33,752 bases of DNA from Saprospiraceae bacterium. Lineage in GTDB: Bacteria; Bacteroidota; Bacteroidia; Chitinophagales; Saprospiraceae. Shown here one piece after another: positions 492-9,736 of the stretch. The DNA lies in NCBI GenBank assembly GCA_020630495.1, contig JAHDBH010000009.1, positions 24,870 through 58,621 of the forward strand, given 5' to 3'. Position 1 is the stretch's first letter; every line of letters starts with the position of its first letter. The translations under genes and the position numbers were made by a program. The notes below the pieces were generated by a model. The model was not told the DNA's origin. It ran no database searches and saw only the letters and a program-made list of their open reading frames with translations.

Positions 492-1481
492 TTAGGGCCT
501 ACGGATTATAACGTATCTAGCATTTCTGTTGTCGCCTTGCTTTTTCCACGCTCCTATTTCTACTCCCTTCCTCATATCTCGCGAAGCCGTAGCAGATGAA
601 ATATCCTTAAACATATCTAAATAATCTCTACGAGCAAAATTGTCTGTGAGATGATGCTCTGTAAAGTAGTTGATCCGCTCTACATCACTCACTATGACGC
701 GCTGAGAAGGCACTAATTTCTGTAAACTGAGTTCTATACGCTCTAGCATGTACTTCACAAAAGCTGTGCAATGTCCTGCTTTATCAGACTGTGATAGTGC
801 ATTATAATAATACTGCTGCTCTATCTTGATCTCATGCTCGATAGGTAAATACTCAAATATGGGATTTTCCTGCATCAGCACTACTGTCTGCCAGAGACGA
901 CCCATGCGTCCATTACCATCCATAAAAGGATGTATAAACTCCATCTCGTAGTGAAATACGCAACTCTTAATGAGCAGATTGTCCTCTGCGGTTTTAAGAT
1001 AGTCAAACAACTGCTTCATCAGATTTTCGACATTCCATGCAGGTGGGGCAAGGTGAGTATTCTGTTCGCCTTGGAAGACGCCAACACTCTGCGTACGAAA
1101 AGTGCCAGCTGACTCAACCAGACCCTGCATTAATATCTTGTGGGCTGATAAATAGGAACTCATGCTGTCATAAGTTAACTTCTGCAGATGATCATATACA
1201 GAAATAGCATTTTTGACTTCTCGTATGTCACGCTCCGTACCGAGAACCCTCTTATCATTAATGATATCGGACACTTGTAGTTCCGTAAGCGGATTCCCCT
1301 CTATCCATAGCGAAGATTGAATAGACAGGATACGATTGGATCTGCCTAGGGTAGCACTAGGCTTACGCAGATGGACAGCATTTATCTTGCCTAGCAACTT
1401 CCCTATGCTGGTGGCTAGACTGATGATCTTGGGTGTGCCGACGTAGTATGTGGAACTCATGATGCTATCATATGATAGCAT
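492..1481 (-). CDS. Fic family protein (putative AMP transferase) with N-terminal inhibitory motif
   Basis: Fic enzymes transfer AMP, or another phosphate-containing group, from a nucleotide onto target proteins. The catalytic loop is complete at residues 184-195, HPFMDGNGRMGR, with catalytic His184 and the anion-binding GNGR. An S-x-x-x-E-G/N inhibitory motif is present upstream (Ser57 to Glu61, SLWIEGN). This places it with Fic proteins that carry their own inhibitory helix in the same chain (class II), so no separate antitoxin is needed. The region around residues 50-100 resembles the Fic_N domain. The last ~60 residues look like a winged helix (FARRDYLDMF, then a recognition-like helix with SRDMRKG), which would suit DNA binding. 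The chosen ATG at 1481 sits inside a perfect palindrome. A second in-frame ATG eight codons in, at 1460, would put the palindrome just upstream of the coding region. The target protein is unknown. Confidence 0.9.
   Translation of the reverse strand: MLSYDSIMSSTYYVGTPKIISLATSIGKLLGKINAVHLRKPSATLGRSNRILSIQSSLWIEGNPLTELQVSDIINDKRVLGTERDIREVKNAISVYDHLQKLTYDSMSSYLSAHKILMQGLVESAGTFRTQSVGVFQGEQNTHLAPPAWNVENLMKQLFDYLKTAEDNLLIKSCVFHYEMEFIHPFMDGNGRMGRLWQTVVLMQENPIFEYLPIEHEIKIEQQYYYNALSQSDKAGHCTAFVKYMLERIELSLQKLVPSQRVIVSDVERINYFTEHHLTDNFARRDYLDMFKDISSATASRDMRKGVEIGAWKKQGDNRNARYVIIRRP
1462..1481. promoter_or_regulatory. Perfect 20-bp palindrome at the fic start
   Basis: The arm ATGCTATCAT (1462-1471) is followed with no spacer by its exact reverse complement ATGATAGCAT (1472-1481). 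The outer end is the first ATG of fic and the inner end lies 1 bp before the second in-frame ATG. A symmetric site at this place would suit a dimeric regulator, possibly the winged-helix tail of Fic itself. That binding is inference. Confidence 0.5.
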
Positions 1482-1802: not shown

Positions 1803-3452
1803 ATGAAGCAACTCCTATATCTCTCTATCTGTCTCTGCAGCTTGCTATCACTGCAGGCACAAGATCGCTGGGACAGTGCCATCCCGCTCAGTGATGAGTA
1901 TGTCATCACTGGTGCCACCGTATACGTCACGCCCACAGATGTGCGGCAGGATGTGAATCTGTGGATCGCCGATGGTAAAGTCAAGCAAATCGGCAACTTC
2001 ACTATCCCGCTCGCTGCGGAGGTCATAGAAGCAGATAGCATGTATGTCTATCCTGGATTCATCCTGGGAGCGTCCCATGCGGCCATCCCTATGCCCAAGG
2101 ACGATAAGCCCGATCGGCCTAGCCGGCCCGGCACACCTACAGACGCTCAAGCCGGCATCACACCTGAGATCTCAGCAGCTGATCAGCTTTCCGCTAAGAG
2201 CAGCGATATAGAAGGTCTGCGCAAGCAGGGATTTACAGTGGCCCACACGGTACCTCACGGCAAGTCATTTCCGGGACAGGGAGCGGTGATCCTGCTAGGA
2301 TCCAATCCTGAAGGCAAGGACGAGCTGCCCATCGCCGCTCAGGTCCTCAGAGAAAAGCACTCGCTCTACAGCACGCTCCAAGGCAGCGGCCGTATGTATC
2401 CGTCTACCGTCATCGGTGTGATGGCCAAGTGGCGCGATCTCTATCGCGGAGCCGAGCTTGCTCACGAGCACGAAAAACTTTACGCTAGCGACAAGTCCGT
2501 AGACCGACCTAGCTATGCACCGAGCTTTACGGCACTTTACCCTGTGATCAATGGTACGCAGGATGTCTACTTTGCTACGGGTGACGCACTGGCGGCACGG
2601 CGTGTGGCCAAGCTGCAGGAGGAGCTCGGGTTTCCCCTGGTGATGACGGATGTGACAGAGTCATGGGACATCATGGGTCTGCTAGACCAGCCATTTCTAC
2701 TCAGTCTCGATCTACCCAAGGAGCCTGCCGAAAAGAAGGACAAAGAGCTCACAGAAGAGATGAAAATGCATCATGAGCGCCAGATGAAAAGCTACGCGAT
2801 GTATCTCAATCAGGCAGATACGCTTGCCCATGCTGGTAAGTCCTATGGTTTTTCGCAGGGAGAGGCCAAGGTCGCAGATCTCATGAAAAATATCAGAAAG
2901 ATGGTCTCCGCAGGCCTCAGCGAAGCCGAAGCGCTGACCGCTCTTACCTCAGCACCAGCTCAGATGCTGGACGTAGCGGACGTCACGGGAAGCCTGCGCA
3001 CAGGCATGATGGCCAATCTGCTGATCAGCGATCAGCCAGTATTTGCCGAGAAGTCCAAGGTGCGATATGTATTTGTAGAGGGTACCATGTATGAGTACAA
3101 CAAGGCTAAGAAAAACGATGCCAAAGTCGAGGGCGATGTGTCCTCTGTGGTGGGATCATGGAACTACACAGCAGAGGTACCTGGCGAATCGATAACTGGC
3201 GTACTCACCATCGTGGACAATGATGGAACACTCAGTGGTACTATGGTATCTGACCAGGACGGCGAGACCACAGAGCTAGAAAGCGTAGGACTAGAAGATG
3301 ATGAACTCACCATCGGCTTTACGATGGAGCAAGAGGGATTTGCTATGCCCATGTCGATCACCGTCACGATTGATGGCGACGTATTTACTGGCACGGTAGC
3401 GGCGGGTCAATTTGGAGAATTTCCCTTTTCGGGACAGAAAAAACCAGAATAA
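1803..3452 (+). CDS. Exported amidohydrolase-fold protein lacking key metal ligands
   Basis: A signal peptide (MKQLLYLSICLCSLLSLQAQ) targets this 549-residue protein to the periplasm or beyond. The front is typical of imidazolonepropionase-like amidohydrolases: VITGATVYVTP, then a GKV..IG strand, then YPGFI. Active members have D-x-H-x-H after the PGxI motif; here the segment is PGFILGASH, so the Asp and the first His are lost and only His92 remains. The region that should carry the later metal ligands reads PVINGTQDVYFATGD, without the usual His. The C-terminal amidohydrolase strand region (SLRTGMMANLLISDQP) is kept. A further ~100 residues (about 450-549) form an all-beta tail with repeated T-x-S-G-T patterns. 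It is probably a non-catalytic partner of the next gene product. The stop codon overlaps the next ATG by 1 nt. Confidence 0.82.
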   Translation: MKQLLYLSICLCSLLSLQAQDRWDSAIPLSDEYVITGATVYVTPTDVRQDVNLWIADGKVKQIGNFTIPLAAEVIEADSMYVYPGFILGASHAAIPMPKDDKPDRPSRPGTPTDAQAGITPEISAADQLSAKSSDIEGLRKQGFTVAHTVPHGKSFPGQGAVILLGSNPEGKDELPIAAQVLREKHSLYSTLQGSGRMYPSTVIGVMAKWRDLYRGAELAHEHEKLYASDKSVDRPSYAPSFTALYPVINGTQDVYFATGDALAARRVAKLQEELGFPLVMTDVTESWDIMGLLDQPFLLSLDLPKEPAEKKDKELTEEMKMHHERQMKSYAMYLNQADTLAHAGKSYGFSQGEAKVADLMKNIRKMVSAGLSEAEALTALTSAPAQMLDVADVTGSLRTGMMANLLISDQPVFAEKSKVRYVFVEGTMYEYNKAKKNDAKVEGDVSSVVGSWNYTAEVPGESITGVLTIVDNDGTLSGTMVSDQDGETTELESVGLEDDELTIGFTMEQEGFAMPMSITVTIDGDVFTGTVAAGQFGEFPFSGQKKPE

Positions 3453-4837
3453 TGAAGAATATACTATACACGCTGGTGCTCACTGTGGCACTGGCACATT
3501 TGGGCGAAAGCCCCCTCCATGCACAGCTCTACGAGGATAATCTGCTCATCACAGGGGCCACGGTCATCACCATGACAGACGAGGTACTCGAGGATACGGA
3601 CGTGCTCATCCGCGATGGTAAGATTTCCAAGATCGGGAAGGGTATCAAGGTGCCTTCCGGCAAAATGCGTGTCATAGATGCCTCGGGAAAATATGTGATG
3701 CCAGGGATCATAGATGCGCACAGTCACCTGGGAATCGATGCGGTCAATGAAGCGACTAATCCTGTGACGGCCGAGGTCTATACTGGTGATGCAATCAATC
3801 CCTACGAGGTGGGGCTCTATCATGCTCTGGCGGGTGGTGTCACTACCTCTCACGCTATGCACGGCTCGGCTAATGCGATCGGTGGACAGTGCGAGACGAT
3901 CAAGCACAGGTACGGCGAGGTGGATCCTGAGCGCTACCGTATGGAGGGTGCGATACGGACGATCAAGTTTGCCCTGGGAGAAAATCCTATGCGCGTACAT
4001 GGTATGGGCAGTCGTATTCAGCCAGCCACGCGTATGGGTATGGAGCAGGTATTCAGGGAGAGTTTTGCAGCGGGAAGGGCCTATGCGGCCAAATGGAAGG
4101 CTTACAATAATCAGAAGGTCAAGACGGGTCCAGCGCCTGCCTATGATCTGCGTCTCCAGACGCTGGCAGATATCCTGAGCGGCGAGGTGATGATCCATTG
4201 CCACAGTTATAGAGCGGACGAGATCCTCATGCTGATGGATGTCTGTAAGGACTACGGGATCGAGAAAATCTGCTTTCAGCACGTGAATGAAGGCTTTAAA
4301 GTAGCACCCGAGCTGGCGGAATTTGGCGCTTACGCGAGTGTATTCTCTGACTGGTGGGCCTACAAATTTGAAGTGTACTATAGCACGGCTTACAATGCTG
4401 CGATCCTTGCTCAGAATGGTGTGGTCACATCTATTAACTCTGACAGCCGCGAGCTCATCCGCCACCTCTATCATGAAGCGGCCAAGACGCAGAAGTACGG
4501 CGGCCTCACTGATCAGCAGGCGCTAGAGATGATCACCATCAATCCTGCCATTCAGCTAGGGATAGATGATCGCGTGGGCACTCTTGAAGTGGGAAAAGAC
4601 GGCGATGTCGCTATCTTTTCGGCACATCCGCTGAGCATCTATGCCATCCCCGAGTATACGGTAGTGGAGGGGCGCGTGGTGTTTGACAGAGCCGCAGATC
4701 CCGCTGACATGCGCCTCCGGATCAATCCTGAGACCAGCTTCGAGGATGGCTACCGAGAGCATGAGCACAGCGATCACCGCTGCATGCAGGGCGTAGAAGA
4801 GCTAGGCCTATTCTTATTCACTGATCACAAGCACTAG
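3452..4837 (+). CDS. Exported metal-dependent amidohydrolase (imidazolonepropionase-like), catalytically complete
   Basis: This 461-residue protein has a signal peptide ending near PLHAQ and a full amidohydrolase layout. VITMTD and IRDGKI strands lead into VMPGIIDAHSH with metal ligands His90 and His92. Further ligand candidates are His249/His251 (MIHCHSYRADE), His277 (CFQHVNEG) and Asp331 (NSDSRE). The end motif GTLEVGKDGDVAIFSAHP is typical of the family. The substrate is unknown; related exported enzymes act on cyclic amides or dipeptides. The last 29 residues are unusually rich in His (HEHSDH and the terminal DHKH). It is the only one of three adjacent paralogues with a complete metal site. 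It overlaps the upstream gene by 1 nt and is followed after 3 nt by the third paralogue. Confidence 0.9.
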   Translation: MKNILYTLVLTVALAHLGESPLHAQLYEDNLLITGATVITMTDEVLEDTDVLIRDGKISKIGKGIKVPSGKMRVIDASGKYVMPGIIDAHSHLGIDAVNEATNPVTAEVYTGDAINPYEVGLYHALAGGVTTSHAMHGSANAIGGQCETIKHRYGEVDPERYRMEGAIRTIKFALGENPMRVHGMGSRIQPATRMGMEQVFRESFAAGRAYAAKWKAYNNQKVKTGPAPAYDLRLQTLADILSGEVMIHCHSYRADEILMLMDVCKDYGIEKICFQHVNEGFKVAPELAEFGAYASVFSDWWAYKFEVYYSTAYNAAILAQNGVVTSINSDSRELIRHLYHEAAKTQKYGGLTDQQALEMITINPAIQLGIDDRVGTLEVGKDGDVAIFSAHPLSIYAIPEYTVVEGRVVFDRAADPADMRLRINPETSFEDGYREHEHSDHRCMQGVEELGLFLFTDHKH

Positions 4838-4840
4838 ACC

Positions 4841-6130
4841 ATGTACAGATATATATTATTACTTGTAGCTGCGCTGAGTATAGGACATCTCTCCGCGCAG
4901 GAAGCTAAGGCTACGCCTGGTGCATTTGCGCTGGTGGATGTCGACATACATACGATCACCAGTGGTGTCATAAAAGGCGGTACACTCATCATCCGTGATG
5001 GTAAGATAGCTGCCATCCATGAGGATCGTCAGACGCCCTCAGACTGTCAAGTCGTAGAGTGCGCAGGGCACTCAGTCTACCCTGGCATGATCGACAGCGG
5101 CACGGGACTGGGCATGAAAGAGGTAGGATCCGTGGCACTCACCGTAGACAGAAACGAAATTGGAAATTTCACGCCGCACATGCGGGCACTCACGGCTGTC
5201 AATCCCAACTCGGTACTCATACCCGTCAATCGTGTATCTGGCGTGACATCTGTACTGGTGGTACCTACAGGTGGCGCCTATCCAGGTACGGCATCGCTCA
5301 TACATCTACATGGCTACACACCTGATCAGATGGCCGCAGGCTATGATGCGGTGGTGATGAATTTTCCACGGACGGGGAAGTTTGGCTCATGGGATCGCAG
5401 AAAAGAAGACAAGATCAAAAGCGACGATGAGAAAAAGCTCAAAGAATTTGACGAGACCTGGAAGCGTGCTAGACAATATGCCAAGCTCGACAGCGCAGGC
5501 CAGCGCGATCAGCTAGCATATAATCCCGAGATGGATGCCCTTCTCCGCGTGATCAAAGGCGAGACCGCACTGCTCATCGAGGTAGATCGCGAAAAAGAAA
5601 TCATCAAAGCCCTAGAGTGGCTCGAGACTGCTCGCATACCCAATGCCGTACTGAGCGGTGTCGCCGAAGGCTGGCGCGTAGCAGATAAGATCCATGCGGC
5701 GGGTGTTCCCGTCATAGTAGGTCCTGTGCTCAGTAATACCTACCGCGACTACGATCGCTATGATGCCCCCTATGCTAATGCGGGTAAGCTCGCACAAGCT
5801 GGTGTGCTCGTGGCTATCAAGACACAAGAAGAAGAAAATGTACGTAATCTTCCTTACCACGCGGGATTTGCTGCGGCGTACGGCATGGGAAAGGAGGAAG
5901 CCATGAAGGCCGTGACAATTAATCCTGCCAAGATTTTTGGACTGGACGATCAGATTGGTAGTATAGAAGTCGGAAAATTAGCTAATCTATATGTCACAGA
6001 CGGCGACCCCATGGAGACTGCTACACAGGTCAAGTATCTCTGGATCCGCGGCTGGCAAGTACCGATCGATAGTCGGCAGATAAGGCTCTATGATGAGTTT
6101 CTGGAGAGAAGTCCTGGATTGAAGAAGTAG
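4841..6130 (+). CDS. Exported amidohydrolase-fold protein without metal site
   Basis: This is the third paralogue of the cluster, 429 residues, with signal peptide MYRYILLLVAALSIGHLSAQ. The fold markers remain: LVDVDIHTIT, IIRDGKIAAI, VYPGMID, and near the C-terminus TINPAKIFGLDDQIGSIEVGKLANLYVTDGDP. The His-x-His of the active family is replaced by Gly87-x-Gly89 (DSGTGLG), and the middle region where the next ligand is expected reads TALLIEVDRE with no His. A hydrolytic role is therefore unlikely, and a structural or substrate-binding subunit is more plausible. The gene starts 3 nt after the stop of the active paralogue, so co-translation and a shared complex are likely. No terminator is obvious downstream. 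Confidence 0.82.
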   Translation: MYRYILLLVAALSIGHLSAQEAKATPGAFALVDVDIHTITSGVIKGGTLIIRDGKIAAIHEDRQTPSDCQVVECAGHSVYPGMIDSGTGLGMKEVGSVALTVDRNEIGNFTPHMRALTAVNPNSVLIPVNRVSGVTSVLVVPTGGAYPGTASLIHLHGYTPDQMAAGYDAVVMNFPRTGKFGSWDRRKEDKIKSDDEKKLKEFDETWKRARQYAKLDSAGQRDQLAYNPEMDALLRVIKGETALLIEVDREKEIIKALEWLETARIPNAVLSGVAEGWRVADKIHAAGVPVIVGPVLSNTYRDYDRYDAPYANAGKLAQAGVLVAIKTQEEENVRNLPYHAGFAAAYGMGKEEAMKAVTINPAKIFGLDDQIGSIEVGKLANLYVTDGDPMETATQVKYLWIRGWQVPIDSRQIRLYDEFLERSPGLKK

Positions 6131-7658: not shown

Positions 7659-8795
7659 CTAGCGCAATATTTCTCGTATGCCATCCAGCAGATGATCGAG
7701 CTCTGCCTCCTGATTATACGGTTGATAACTGATCCTGATATACTCATCATCGTGTAGGCGATTGACGGCGAGCACGATTCCGTGATTACGTTCCAAGTTT
7801 TCCTTGAGCTTCAGCATATCTACCGCAGGATTATAGAAACTAGCCATCTGTCCTGTCCATTCATCTGTCTGGGGAGCGAGCAACTTGCTGCCTAGCACTT
7901 CGGCAAATCTTGGAGCATACTTGCGCAGTATGGAGCGGCATTCTTCAGTACGCTGCTCCCAGCCATACTTGCGTCTAAATTCAATACACGCATCCATGCA
8001 TAAATACGCGCTGAAATCCACTGTACCCTGATATTGATGATACGATTGAAATCTTTCACGTCCATGGAGCAGTGGTTGATAGCCCCAGGAAATCGCAAGC
8101 GGATCTATCTGATCCTGTAAGTCAGTCCTTACATAAAGAAAAGAATTACCCTTGGGAGATAGGAGCCACTTGTGATTAGCCCCTATATAGATATCTGGAT
8201 CTAATGTGGACAGATCTAAATCCAGATGGCCTGGCACATGCGCACCATCCACGATACATAGTATGCCCAGCTCACGAGCACGTCTACATATATCAGCCAC
8301 GGGCATGACCAGAGCCGTGGCACTGGTCATATGAGAAATAAATATGACTCGCGTACGATCAGTCAATCCCGACCAAAATTGATCGAGAAGCTTATCGGCA
8401 CTATAGATGGGAAGCTCTATTGTTGATCGTACGACTTTCGCCTGAGCGCTATGGCAATGATAGTCCCATGCTATGTCTAGAGCTCCATATTCCTGATTAG
8501 TAGTCAGCACTTCATCACCTTTTTGGAGATTTATGCTTTTCATGACTGCATTCATGGCCGCTGTAGGATTGGGCACAAAGACGAGATCGCGGTGATCACA
8601 AGACAAGAAATTAGCTAGTGATTTTCTGGATTTGTCCAGTGCTTCTCTTCCTTGACCAGTAATCCAGCCCGTGGGGTTGCGCTCAAGCGATAGCTGATAA
8701 TCTTGATATACCTTGACCACCTCCTTGGGACATGCGCCGAAGGCTCCATGATTTAAATATGTAATAGTAGGATCTAGATGAAATAAATCTTTCAT
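7659..8795 (-). CDS. egtE: Class V aminotransferase-fold PLP enzyme, probable EgtE (hercynylcysteine sulfoxide lyase)
   Basis: This 378-residue protein has the CefD/isopenicillin-N-epimerase-like class V fold. The N-terminus TYLNHGAFGACPKEV is typical. Asp183 (IVDGAH) should contact the PLP pyridine nitrogen, and Lys209 (GANHKWLLSPKG) should form the Schiff base. The general fold covers desulfurases, epimerases and lyases. The neighbourhood decides the call: it follows egtD with a 4-nt ATGA overlap and is preceded by egtB. In ergothioneine synthesis EgtE cleaves the C-S bond of hercynylcysteine sulfoxide to give ergothioneine. The chain is full length with no missing motif. If the egt context is misleading, it would be an uncharacterised class V lyase or epimerase. 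Confidence 0.8.
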   Translation of the reverse strand: MKDLFHLDPTITYLNHGAFGACPKEVVKVYQDYQLSLERNPTGWITGQGREALDKSRKSLANFLSCDHRDLVFVPNPTAAMNAVMKSINLQKGDEVLTTNQEYGALDIAWDYHCHSAQAKVVRSTIELPIYSADKLLDQFWSGLTDRTRVIFISHMTSATALVMPVADICRRARELGILCIVDGAHVPGHLDLDLSTLDPDIYIGANHKWLLSPKGNSFLYVRTDLQDQIDPLAISWGYQPLLHGRERFQSYHQYQGTVDFSAYLCMDACIEFRRKYGWEQRTEECRSILRKYAPRFAEVLGSKLLAPQTDEWTGQMASFYNPAVDMLKLKENLERNHGIVLAVNRLHDDEYIRISYQPYNQEAELDHLLDGIREILR

Positions 8796-9736
8796 TCCTT
8801 GACGAGTAGGTAATCAGCGAAGTAAGATTTGCTGTCTACAAATTTATCACGGATCACTAGCGATGAAGTAGAGATCACGTTTTCAAGCACTTTATCGTTG
8901 TATTTTCTAGATATCTCTACATGGATACGCTCACCCTTTGCGAAATGAAAAACACGATCCAGCACCGCTATCCGGACTGACTGATTAACCAGACTCTCGA
9001 GATAAGATCGTGCTATTCCTTCCTCCTCTGTATATGTCGCTCGGTGAGCGAACTGATCCAAGTCAAAATCTGCATCTAGTTCCCGATTAATTCGTCTCAG
9101 CAGATTAAGATTAAAAGAAGCTGTGATACCAGCTGGATCATTGTATGCTGGTAAGACGACTCCCTTGGGCTTAATCTGATCTAGACCAAGAAGCACCTTA
9201 TCACCAGGTCTGAGATTCTCTCCTAGTTGGTTCATAAATGAACTCGCCTCGTCATCGTTCATATTTCCCAAATTAGATCCTAGAAACAAGACTACTTTAG
9301 GGCGGTCACTGCTGCTCAGACTTGATAGCACAGAAAAATACTCTCCTTGTAATGGAGCGACCTGTAAATCTGGTAGCTCCGATGCGAGAGATTTTTTGAG
9401 ACCGTCCAGAGCATTGTGTGATATGTCTATGGGTACATATCGCACATGGTACGACGATGCCAACACCTCTCGCAGTAGAATTTTAGTCTTACTACCATCA
9501 CCTGCACCCAGCTCTACCAGATCAAAGGGTCGGTGTGTATCCATATCCCAGCTACCTACTATTACCTCAGCATGAACACTAAATATTCCAGCTTCTGCGT
9601 CCGTCAGATAATACTCTGGCATCTTCATGATTTGCTGAAATATCTTGTCACCTATTTCATCATAGAAGTATTTTGACGAAAGTCGCTTAGGCGTGCTCGA
9701 TAATCCAATCTCTACATCTCTACACAGGTCACTCAT
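8792..9736 (-). CDS. egtD: L-histidine N-alpha-methyltransferase EgtD
   Basis: EgtD adds three methyl groups from SAM to the alpha-amino group of histidine, giving hercynine, the first step of ergothioneine synthesis. The 314-residue length is normal. The family-specific N-terminus is present (SSTPKRLSSKYFYDEIGDKI, then MPEYYLTDAE), and the SAM-binding loop is ELGAGDGSKT at residues 75-84, with the next acidic strand end at Asp104 (VPIDIS). LFLGSNLGNM around residues 150-160 is also characteristic. The start lies 4 nt after the egtB stop and the end overlaps the PLP lyase by 4 nt, so the three genes form a tight block. Confidence 0.94.
   Translation of the reverse strand: MSDLCRDVEIGLSSTPKRLSSKYFYDEIGDKIFQQIMKMPEYYLTDAEAGIFSVHAEVIVGSWDMDTHRPFDLVELGAGDGSKTKILLREVLASSYHVRYVPIDISHNALDGLKKSLASELPDLQVAPLQGEYFSVLSSLSSSDRPKVVLFLGSNLGNMNDDEASSFMNQLGENLRPGDKVLLGLDQIKPKGVVLPAYNDPAGITASFNLNLLRRINRELDADFDLDQFAHRATYTEEEGIARSYLESLVNQSVRIAVLDRVFHFAKGERIHVEISRKYNDKVLENVISTSSLVIRDKFVDSKSYFADYLLVKE

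What the first reader, a model, noticed from the sequence alone, without database searches (positions are those of the whole stretch)
1803..6130. Three adjacent amidohydrolase-fold proteins, only one with a metal site
Junctions of -1 nt and +3 nt show the three exported proteins are made together. At the first ligand motif the middle protein has HSH, the first has ASH with the preceding Asp lost, and the third has GTG. The later His ligands are also absent from the flanking proteins. This suggests a complex with one catalytic and two pseudo-enzyme subunits, or stepwise decay of a duplicated set; some relatives carry fused amidohydrolase domains.
Basis: partly seen in the sequence, partly recalled or inferred. 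Interest (0 to 1): 0.6.

Follow-up and report, generated by a model that had tools for sequence, protein, structure and literature searches.

The report
One enzyme with two dead partners
Three neighbouring genes encode one metal-dependent hydrolase and two look-alike proteins that have lost the metal site, and the same set is kept together, sometimes as one fused protein, across several bacterial phyla, which points to an undescribed three-part enzyme.

Summary
P1 (1803-3452), P2 (3452-4837) and P3 (4841-6130) are three exported-looking amidohydrolase-fold proteins; only P2 has a metal site. P2 carries a complete two-metal set (H90, H92, K172, H251, H277, D331); P1 and P3 have lost it.

It is not local decay. 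All five His/Asp ligands and the Lys are kept in 172 of 172 P2-type sequences. None of 178 P3-type has more than 2 of the five; none of 170 P1-type has more than 2 except one with 3. The set recurs in named records of ten phyla, with P1+P2, P2+P3 and triple fusions. In a sample of the window's phylum, 131 of 247 genomes hold P2-type and 130 of these P3-type at my score cut; the last is unreadable there. P1 and P3 are under purifying selection (median dN/dS 0.084 and 0.031; P2 0.033). A sister two-gene set, one live and one dead, exists.

Best reading: an exported amide or peptide hydrolase of one catalytic and two pseudo-enzyme subunits. Complex, ratio, chemistry and substrate are inferred. 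My paper searches found no description.

The parts
1803..3452 (+). P1 (type A): pseudo-amidohydrolase with export leader, 549 aa; metal-ligand positions A90, H92, A258, D283, K356 (last one uncertain); extra C-terminal beta domain from about residue 445
3452..4837 (+). P2 (type B): catalytic-type amidohydrolase with export leader, 461 aa; complete set H90, H92, K172, H251, H277, D331
4841..6130 (+). P3 (type C): pseudo-amidohydrolase with export leader, 429 aa; ligand positions G87, G89, E247, G273, Q329; nearly invariant non-ligand residues E94, D103, E106, R131
3450..3454 (+). P1/P2 junction TAATG, 1-nt overlap
4835..4843 (+). P2/P3 junction TAG-ACC-ATG, 3-nt gap

Best explanation
The three genes encode an exported hetero-oligomeric amidohydrolase. 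P2 is the only catalytic subunit: an (alpha/beta)8 barrel with a two-metal site (HxH on strand 1, probably a carboxylated Lys172 on strand 4, His on strands 5 and 6, Asp on strand 8) that hydrolyses an amide or peptide bond of a small extracytoplasmic substrate. P1 and P3 are barrels of the same fold without metal. They are kept as obligate partners that assemble with P2, stabilise it and shape or gate its active site, much as neighbouring subunits of a homo-oligomer would. Shown here: shared fold, ligand pattern, conservation, co-occurrence, fusion, purifying selection. Inferred: export, physical complex, 1:1:1 ratio, partner function, hydrolase chemistry, substrate.
For: Five ligands in 172/172 P2-type sequences; P3-type n=178: 129 with 0, 45 with 1, 4 with 2; P1-type n=170: 122 with 0, 35 with 1, 12 with 2, 1 with 3 (a few truncated P1-type rows count as 0; the per-family alignments, on the first 92 P1-type and 101 P3-type, give at most 2). 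K172 in 172/172 P2-type. Of 80 named loci, 55 have three separate adjacent genes, 11 P1P2 fused + P3, 6 P1 + P2P3 fused, 2 P2P3 fused followed by P1, 1 triple fusion, 2 P1P2 fused with P3 elsewhere in the genome, 3 incomplete at contig ends. Sample of the window's phylum: P2-type in 131/247 genomes, P3-type in 130 of these and in no other at my cut; in 16 genomes P3 is on another contig or far off while P2-type lies in a frame of 1018-1072 aa, the length of the P1P2 fusions. Sample of the phylum of G250 (an Acidobacteriota record): 65 of 66 P2-type genomes also have P3-type at 290 bits or more. dN/dS medians P1 0.084, P2 0.033, P3 0.031. Distance matrices of the three types correlate, r 0.77-0.86, 0 of 2000 permutations as high. 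A natural P1P2 fusion is predicted with pTM 0.85 over 999 residues, so the relative placing of its two barrels is fairly well defined.
Against: No biochemical, complex or structural data. The correlated distances partly reflect shared species history. Fusion and co-occurrence show a functional link, not necessarily contact. P1-type evolves fast and has few conserved polar residues. The model was of a two-part fusion from another genome, not of the three-chain complex. One P1-type domain (L155) keeps HxH plus the Asp, and one of 25 P3-type rows has Lys at the K172 column. Hydrolase chemistry is not fixed by the fold: deaminases and dipeptidases score alike against the P2-type half (Z 23-25).
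Confidence: 0.75

Rival explanations
1. P1 and P3 are separate proteins with a different job (for example binding the substrate or product as periplasmic receptors) that act in the same pathway as P2 but do not form a stable complex with it.
For: P3-type keeps polar residues that are not the metal set (E94, D103, E106, R131; 175-177 of 178 each), which could be a binding site. In 16 genomes P3 is not encoded beside P1P2.
Against: Fusions occur at both junctions and between all three, so the proteins tolerate and probably need a fixed ratio and proximity. All three are closest to one solved barrel, 3ooq, which makes swapped-in oligomer partners the simpler account.
Confidence: 0.15
2. P1 and P3 have a different, so far unrecognised, active site and are enzymes in their own right.
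For: P3-type has nearly invariant acidic residues and an Arg around the first barrel loop.
Against: No His or Cys among the columns at least 93% identical in 170 P1-type or 178 P3-type sequences, and no acidic residue among those of P1-type. The strand-6 His position is Gly in 97 of 101 P3-type sequences.
Confidence: 0.06
3. Recent duplication of an amidohydrolase followed by stepwise decay of two copies towards pseudogenes.
For: Ligands are missing in both flanking genes.
Against: Separate clusters for the three types with rows from several phyla, dN/dS far below 1, and open P1 frames of 434-658 aa in the three-gene loci.
Confidence: 0.01

Closest known systems
Thermotoga maritima amidohydrolase, PDB 3ooq
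   Same: Closest solved relative of all three proteins; same fold over the full barrel; has the P2-type ligand set, including the strand-4 Lys.
   Different: A single catalytic-type chain (10 copies in the entry). Whether its genome has pseudo-partners was not examined. No paper naming it together with 'amidohydrolase' was found.
Pseudomonas aeruginosa aspartate transcarbamoylase with pseudo-dihydroorotase (pDHO)
   Same: A dihydroorotase-like chain that is inactive but required for an enzyme complex (abstract of PMC7053772).
   Different: There the dead chain serves an unrelated enzyme (ATCase), in six-plus-six copies; here two dead barrels accompany a live barrel of their own family and carry export leaders.
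AibH1H2 monooxygenase of Rhodococcus
   Same: Hetero-oligomer of two related chains; AibH2 is catalytic and AibH1 is thought to be structural; AibH2 resembles PtmU3, repurposed from the amidohydrolase superfamily (passages of PMC12141560 and PMC10401708).
   Different: AibH1 still binds a metal and its role is not settled (PMC10401708); two chain types, not three; an oxygenase; kinship to 3ooq not tested.
Xaa-Pro dipeptidases, Arg/Lys carboxypeptidases, isoaspartyl dipeptidases
   Same: Among the next nearest folds (P1 model Z 21-23; P2-type half of the fusion Z 23-25). Several use a carboxylated strand-4 Lys and two metals (recalled, no call).
   Different: Far below 3ooq (Z 43-45), and adenosine-deaminase-type entries score as high against the P2-type half. 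No dead paralogous subunit that I know of (recalled).

Membership tests
Amidohydrolase superfamily (P2) | (alpha/beta)8 barrel of this fold | tested here: met
   Pfam Amidohydro_1 71.4 bits, cut-off 25; 3ooq E 6e-55; P2-type half of a fusion model Z 45.2 to 3ooq
Amidohydrolase superfamily (P2) | HxH strand 1, His strand 5, His strand 6, Asp strand 8 | tested here: met
   172 of 172 P2-type sequences; positions at or just after strand ends in the fusion model
Two-metal subtype with carboxylated Lys (P2) | Lys on strand 4 | tested here: met
   K172 in 172 of 172; equivalent K706 lies in predicted strand 703-708 of the fusion. The subtype scheme is recalled
Two-metal subtype with carboxylated Lys (P2) | Two bound metals and carboxylated Lys | not testable with these tools
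   needs metal analysis or a structure
Catalytically competent amidohydrolase (P1) | Metal ligand set | tested here: not met
   Window P1 has 1 of the five (H92); 170 P1-type sequences: at most 2, but for one with 3
Catalytically competent amidohydrolase (P3) | Metal ligand set | tested here: not met
   Window P3 has 0 of the five; 178 P3-type sequences: at most 2
Amidohydrolase fold (P1) | Same barrel fold | tested here: met
   AlphaFold model mean pLDDT 91.2, Z 43.2 to 3ooq over 361 residues; sequence 9.7e-9, profile 1.7e-41
Pfam PF01979 Amidohydro_1 (P1) | Score over the curated cut-off | tested here: not met
   23.2 bits against 25; 25.7 with neighbouring pieces summed in the genome search
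Amidohydrolase fold (P3) | Same barrel fold | tested here: met
   Pfam 49.9 bits, cut-off 25; 3ooq over residues 35-407, E 1.6e-33
Imidazolonepropionase (HutI) | Score over the curated family cut-off | tested here: not met
   TIGR01224: 25.2, 54.6 and 45 bits for P1, P2, P3 against cut-off 298.15
Hetero-oligomeric enzyme with pseudo-enzyme subunits | Stable physical complex | not testable with these tools
   Only indirect: fusions, co-occurrence
Hetero-oligomeric enzyme with pseudo-enzyme subunits | Dead subunits under purifying selection | tested here: met
   dN/dS medians 0.084 (P1) and 0.031 (P3) in relatives, not including the window

The most novel reading that the evidence does not exclude
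A widespread class of exported enzymes in which dead barrels outnumber live ones and take part in catalysis: the conserved P3 residues around the first loop (E94, D103, E106, R131), and perhaps a P1 loop, reach into the single P2 metal site and complete or gate it. The principle is graded: one live with one dead (duo), one live with two dead (trio), and in a planctomycete a run of about nine barrels in which, of the four first ligand motifs that I could read, one is intact.
Probability: 0.3. Interest if true: 0.75.

Novelty: new variant of a known kind. Interest (0 to 1): 0.62.

Why it matters
Pseudo-enzyme subunits are usually found case by case. Here one fold supplies a live and two dead subunits in a fixed set, held by 131 of 247 genomes in a sample of the window's phylum (130 with P3-type found) and seen in named records of ten phyla, with natural two- and three-part fusions that make a complex easy to express and test. 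Pfam and NCBIfam give these proteins only generic matches, so P1- and P3-type proteins are probably taken for hydrolases in many genomes (inference; annotations not surveyed). The duo, trio and array forms offer a natural series for asking why dead copies are retained.

Tried and rejected
Recent-decay reading: rejected by tree, dN/dS and conservation. Histidine-pathway reading (HutI): rejected, scores far below cut-off. A universal neighbour that would name the substrate: none among 1084 neighbouring ORFs of 180 loci. The commonest is an AAA-ATPase gene on the same strand in 19 loci (17 upstream, 16 within 800 nt), then an ABC-type ATPase in 18 loci (4 within 800 nt; named by eye); neither suggests a substrate (only one representative of some clusters was scanned against Pfam). 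The rooted tree puts P1-type outside the rest, then P3-type, then the duo partner, which would mean at least three separate losses of the metal site; I do not rely on it because fast dead branches and a distant outgroup invite long-branch error and only SH-aLRT support was computed. The P1 C-terminal beta domain was not searched on its own, and P3 was not modelled. A first count gave one 'P1-fusion-P3' locus (L103); I moved it to the three-gene class because the N-half of that frame did not match P1-type, and dropped its N-half from the census. One note of mine named 3ooq TM0814 from memory; that was wrong and is not used.

Limits of the counts. The genomes of the phylum sample are unnamed; that the phylum is Bacteroidota is inferred from named relatives. 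P2-type and P3-type lists for one search were copied by hand by score: P2-type 397 bits or more; P3-type 156 bits or more plus one 129-bit match (G041), accepted because it lies beside a P2-type match. Without it the count is 129 of 131. P3-like matches of about 115-139 bits were left out as duo partners, some in genomes without P2-type; I checked only those. The match lists are capped. In one search the cuts were 376 and 290 bits; the miss (G388) has a broken 217-bit P3-type match beside its P2-type gene, and G348 has P3-type with a 255-bit partial P2-type match beside it. The 80 named loci are the best 80 of 587 kept by the tool and lean to close relatives; many are metagenome bins, so single-record phyla (Actinomycetota above all) may be mis-assigned. 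Of 40 pairs computed for dN/dS, pairs with dS of 2 or more or not computable were left out of the medians; pairs are not independent and none includes the window. ORF ends use the longest reading frame, so overlaps are overstated. The 18 duo loci are those that I chose from the match lists; of the 20 regions asked for the others are G007 (L262) and a 100-base placeholder (L265). Paper searches see only open-licence papers, and searches listed 15 of 53 and 15 of 1,176 papers.
Full report
What is there. The window lies in a 3.5-Mb draft genome, 94.6% complete. Its nearest named relatives by P2 are Saprospiraceae, so it is probably of that family, in Bacteroidota (inference). Three + strand ORFs follow each other at 1803-3452 (P1), 3452-4837 (P2) and 4841-6130 (P3), with a 1-nt overlap and a 3-nt gap. 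Each starts with a hydrophobic leader that ends in AQ. This fits the Bacteroidetes 'Q-rule' of signal-peptide cleavage (start of the abstract of PMC5837995 in the listing). A simple pattern for such a leader was met by 47 of 60 P1, 55 of 60 P2, 64 of 101 P3 and 27 of 32 fusion N-halves. No second P2-type gene was found in the genome.

Fold and ligands. All three match PDB 3ooq best. P1 falls just under the Pfam cut-off, but AlphaFold gives window P1 a mean pLDDT of 91.2, and the model matches 3ooq at Z 43.2 over 361 residues while the next entry scores 23.2. Profile-profile alignment maps the P2 ligands onto P1 and P3. P2 has H90, H92, H251, H277 and D331; window P1 keeps only H92, and window P3 keeps none. 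Lys172 of P2 is invariant, is present in 3ooq and in 7 of 7 duo enzymes compared, and is absent from the P1-type rows, the duo partners and 24 of 25 P3-type rows of the tree alignment. Its equivalent lies in a predicted strand of the fusion model, so I read P2 as a two-metal enzyme of the carboxylated-lysine type. That step rests on the recalled subtype scheme of the superfamily; carboxylation and metal content are not shown.

Conservation. I fetched 100 loci from the window's phylum that hold a P3-type gene. With the window, 60 of 101 are P1-P2-P3, 32 are a roughly 1000-residue P1P2 fusion followed by P3, and 9 have P3 alone. All nine of those genomes hold a P2-type gene elsewhere, in a frame of fusion length. 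Of 59 three-gene sets scored (window included), 55 have 50 nt or less between P1 and P2 and 55 between P2 and P3. Over these and the named loci, 172 of 172 P2-type sequences have the five ligands. Of 178 P3-type, 129 have none, 45 one, 4 two. Of 170 P1-type, 122 have none, 35 one, 12 two and 1 three. That one, the N-half of L155, keeps a DAHSH motif but not the strand-5 and strand-6 His. P3-type sequences share E94, D103, E106 and R131 (175-177 of 178 each), while P1-type sequences share hardly any polar residue.

Distribution and linkage. Among 247 genomes sampled from the window's phylum, P2-type occurs in 131 and P3-type in 130 of those, and in no other at my cut; P3 lies directly downstream of 115 of 132 P2-type genes and elsewhere in 16 genomes. 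The remaining genome, G007, reads as N from inside its P2-type half onward, so it cannot be scored. The 80 named loci come from ten phyla by NCBI name: Bacteroidota 40, Acidobacteriota 24, Planctomycetota 5, Gemmatimonadota 2, Armatimonadota 2, one each of Balneolota, Ignavibacteriota, Actinomycetota, Krumholzibacteriota and Fidelibacterota, and 2 unplaced. They show 55 three-gene sets, 11 P1P2 fusions with P3, 6 P1 with P2P3 fusions, 2 P2P3 fusions followed by P1, one single protein of all three (L232), 2 P1P2 fusions without P3 nearby, and 3 incomplete at contig ends. The two without P3 nearby (Armatimonadota) have a P3-type gene elsewhere in the genome, at 495 and 501 bits. In 149 genomes drawn from the phylum of G250 (the genome of L239, an Acidobacteriota record), 66 have P2-type and 65 of these P3-type at the cuts used.

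History. In a tree of 92 sequences P2-type, P3-type, duo-enzyme and duo-partner are each one side of a branch with 100% SH-aLRT, and P1-type is one cluster but for an unresolved Gemmatimonadota row. The distance matrices of the three types over 25 loci correlate at r 0.77 (P1-P2), 0.86 (P2-P3) and 0.77 (P1-P3), with 0 of 2000 permutations as high; shared species history contributes. dN/dS medians in close pairs with dS below 2 are 0.084 (P1, 23 pairs), 0.033 (P2, 24) and 0.031 (P3, 25). The dead subunits are therefore old and maintained.

A second set. Weaker P2-type and P3-type matches led to 18 loci with a two-gene set. One gene has all five ligands in 18 of 18; its neighbour keeps only the first His in 14 and none in 4. 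The live-plus-dead pairing is thus broader than the trio.

Mechanism. Most likely the three chains form one exported particle. A homo-oligomeric 3ooq-like ancestor would have had its neighbouring subunits replaced by paralogues that keep the contacts and lose the metal; natural fusion of P1 with P2, of P2 with P3, or of all three fits such an assembly. The P1P2 fusion model (L153) has pTM 0.85 over 999 residues, so the two barrels are placed against each other with fair confidence; I could not model the three-chain complex. Reaction: amide or peptide hydrolysis is the ordinary chemistry of the two-metal type (recalled), but fold scores do not separate dipeptidases from deaminases. Only in Cyclobacteriaceae is there a hint of substrate: a gene of one cluster, whose scanned representative is an NlpC/P60 protein with SH3 domains, lies 16-224 nt downstream on the same strand in 11 loci. 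A cluster whose representative is an M28 peptidase lies downstream on the same strand in 13 loci, 10 of them named and all Cyclobacteriaceae. That points to peptides, possibly murein peptides, but is weak.

What is known. Dead amidohydrolase-type subunits exist: the Pseudomonas pDHO chain (abstract of PMC7053772), and AibH1 in AibH1H2, thought structural though it binds metal (passages of PMC12141560 and PMC10401708). I found no paper on this set in the searches; the library holds open-licence papers only and two of these listings were partial. I therefore rate it a new variant of a known kind.

Noticed in passing
L275:3032-14851 (G249 contig C6, Planctomycetota BJ17): Seven consecutive minus-strand ORFs, about 4000 residues in all (about nine barrels by length), that all match the P1/P2/P3 models; of the four whose first ligand motif I could read, one has HSH, the others read LYE, HSS and RSQ.
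   Followed up: partly
L249-L261, L263, L264, L266-L268: A separate two-gene set: one live amidohydrolase and one dead partner, 18 of 18 loci chosen.
   Followed up: partly
L185-L187, L189-L191, L193-L195, L205, L221: In these 11 Cyclobacteriaceae loci a gene of an NlpC/P60-type cluster follows the trio closely on the same strand; an M28-type peptidase follows in several of them.
   Followed up: partly
19 loci, e.g. L111:8263-10080, L097, L106, L076: An AAA-ATPase gene is the commonest neighbour of the set, on the same strand in 19 of 180 loci and mostly just upstream.
   Followed up: no
L112, L114-L127: The P1 proteins of these 15 loci (group f23) are only 434-469 aa and so seem to lack the C-terminal beta domain of the longer P1 proteins.
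   Followed up: no
L262: The fused P1P2 frame of G007 runs into a long run of N; its P2-type end and any P3 cannot be read.
   Followed up: no
window 492-1481 (-): ORF with a Fic-type motif HPFMDGNGRMGR, read by eye upstream of the set (motif name recalled).
   Followed up: no
window 7659-9736 (-): Two overlapping ORFs that look by eye like a PLP-dependent C-S lyase and an EgtD-type methyltransferase, perhaps ergothioneine synthesis (names recalled).
   Followed up: no
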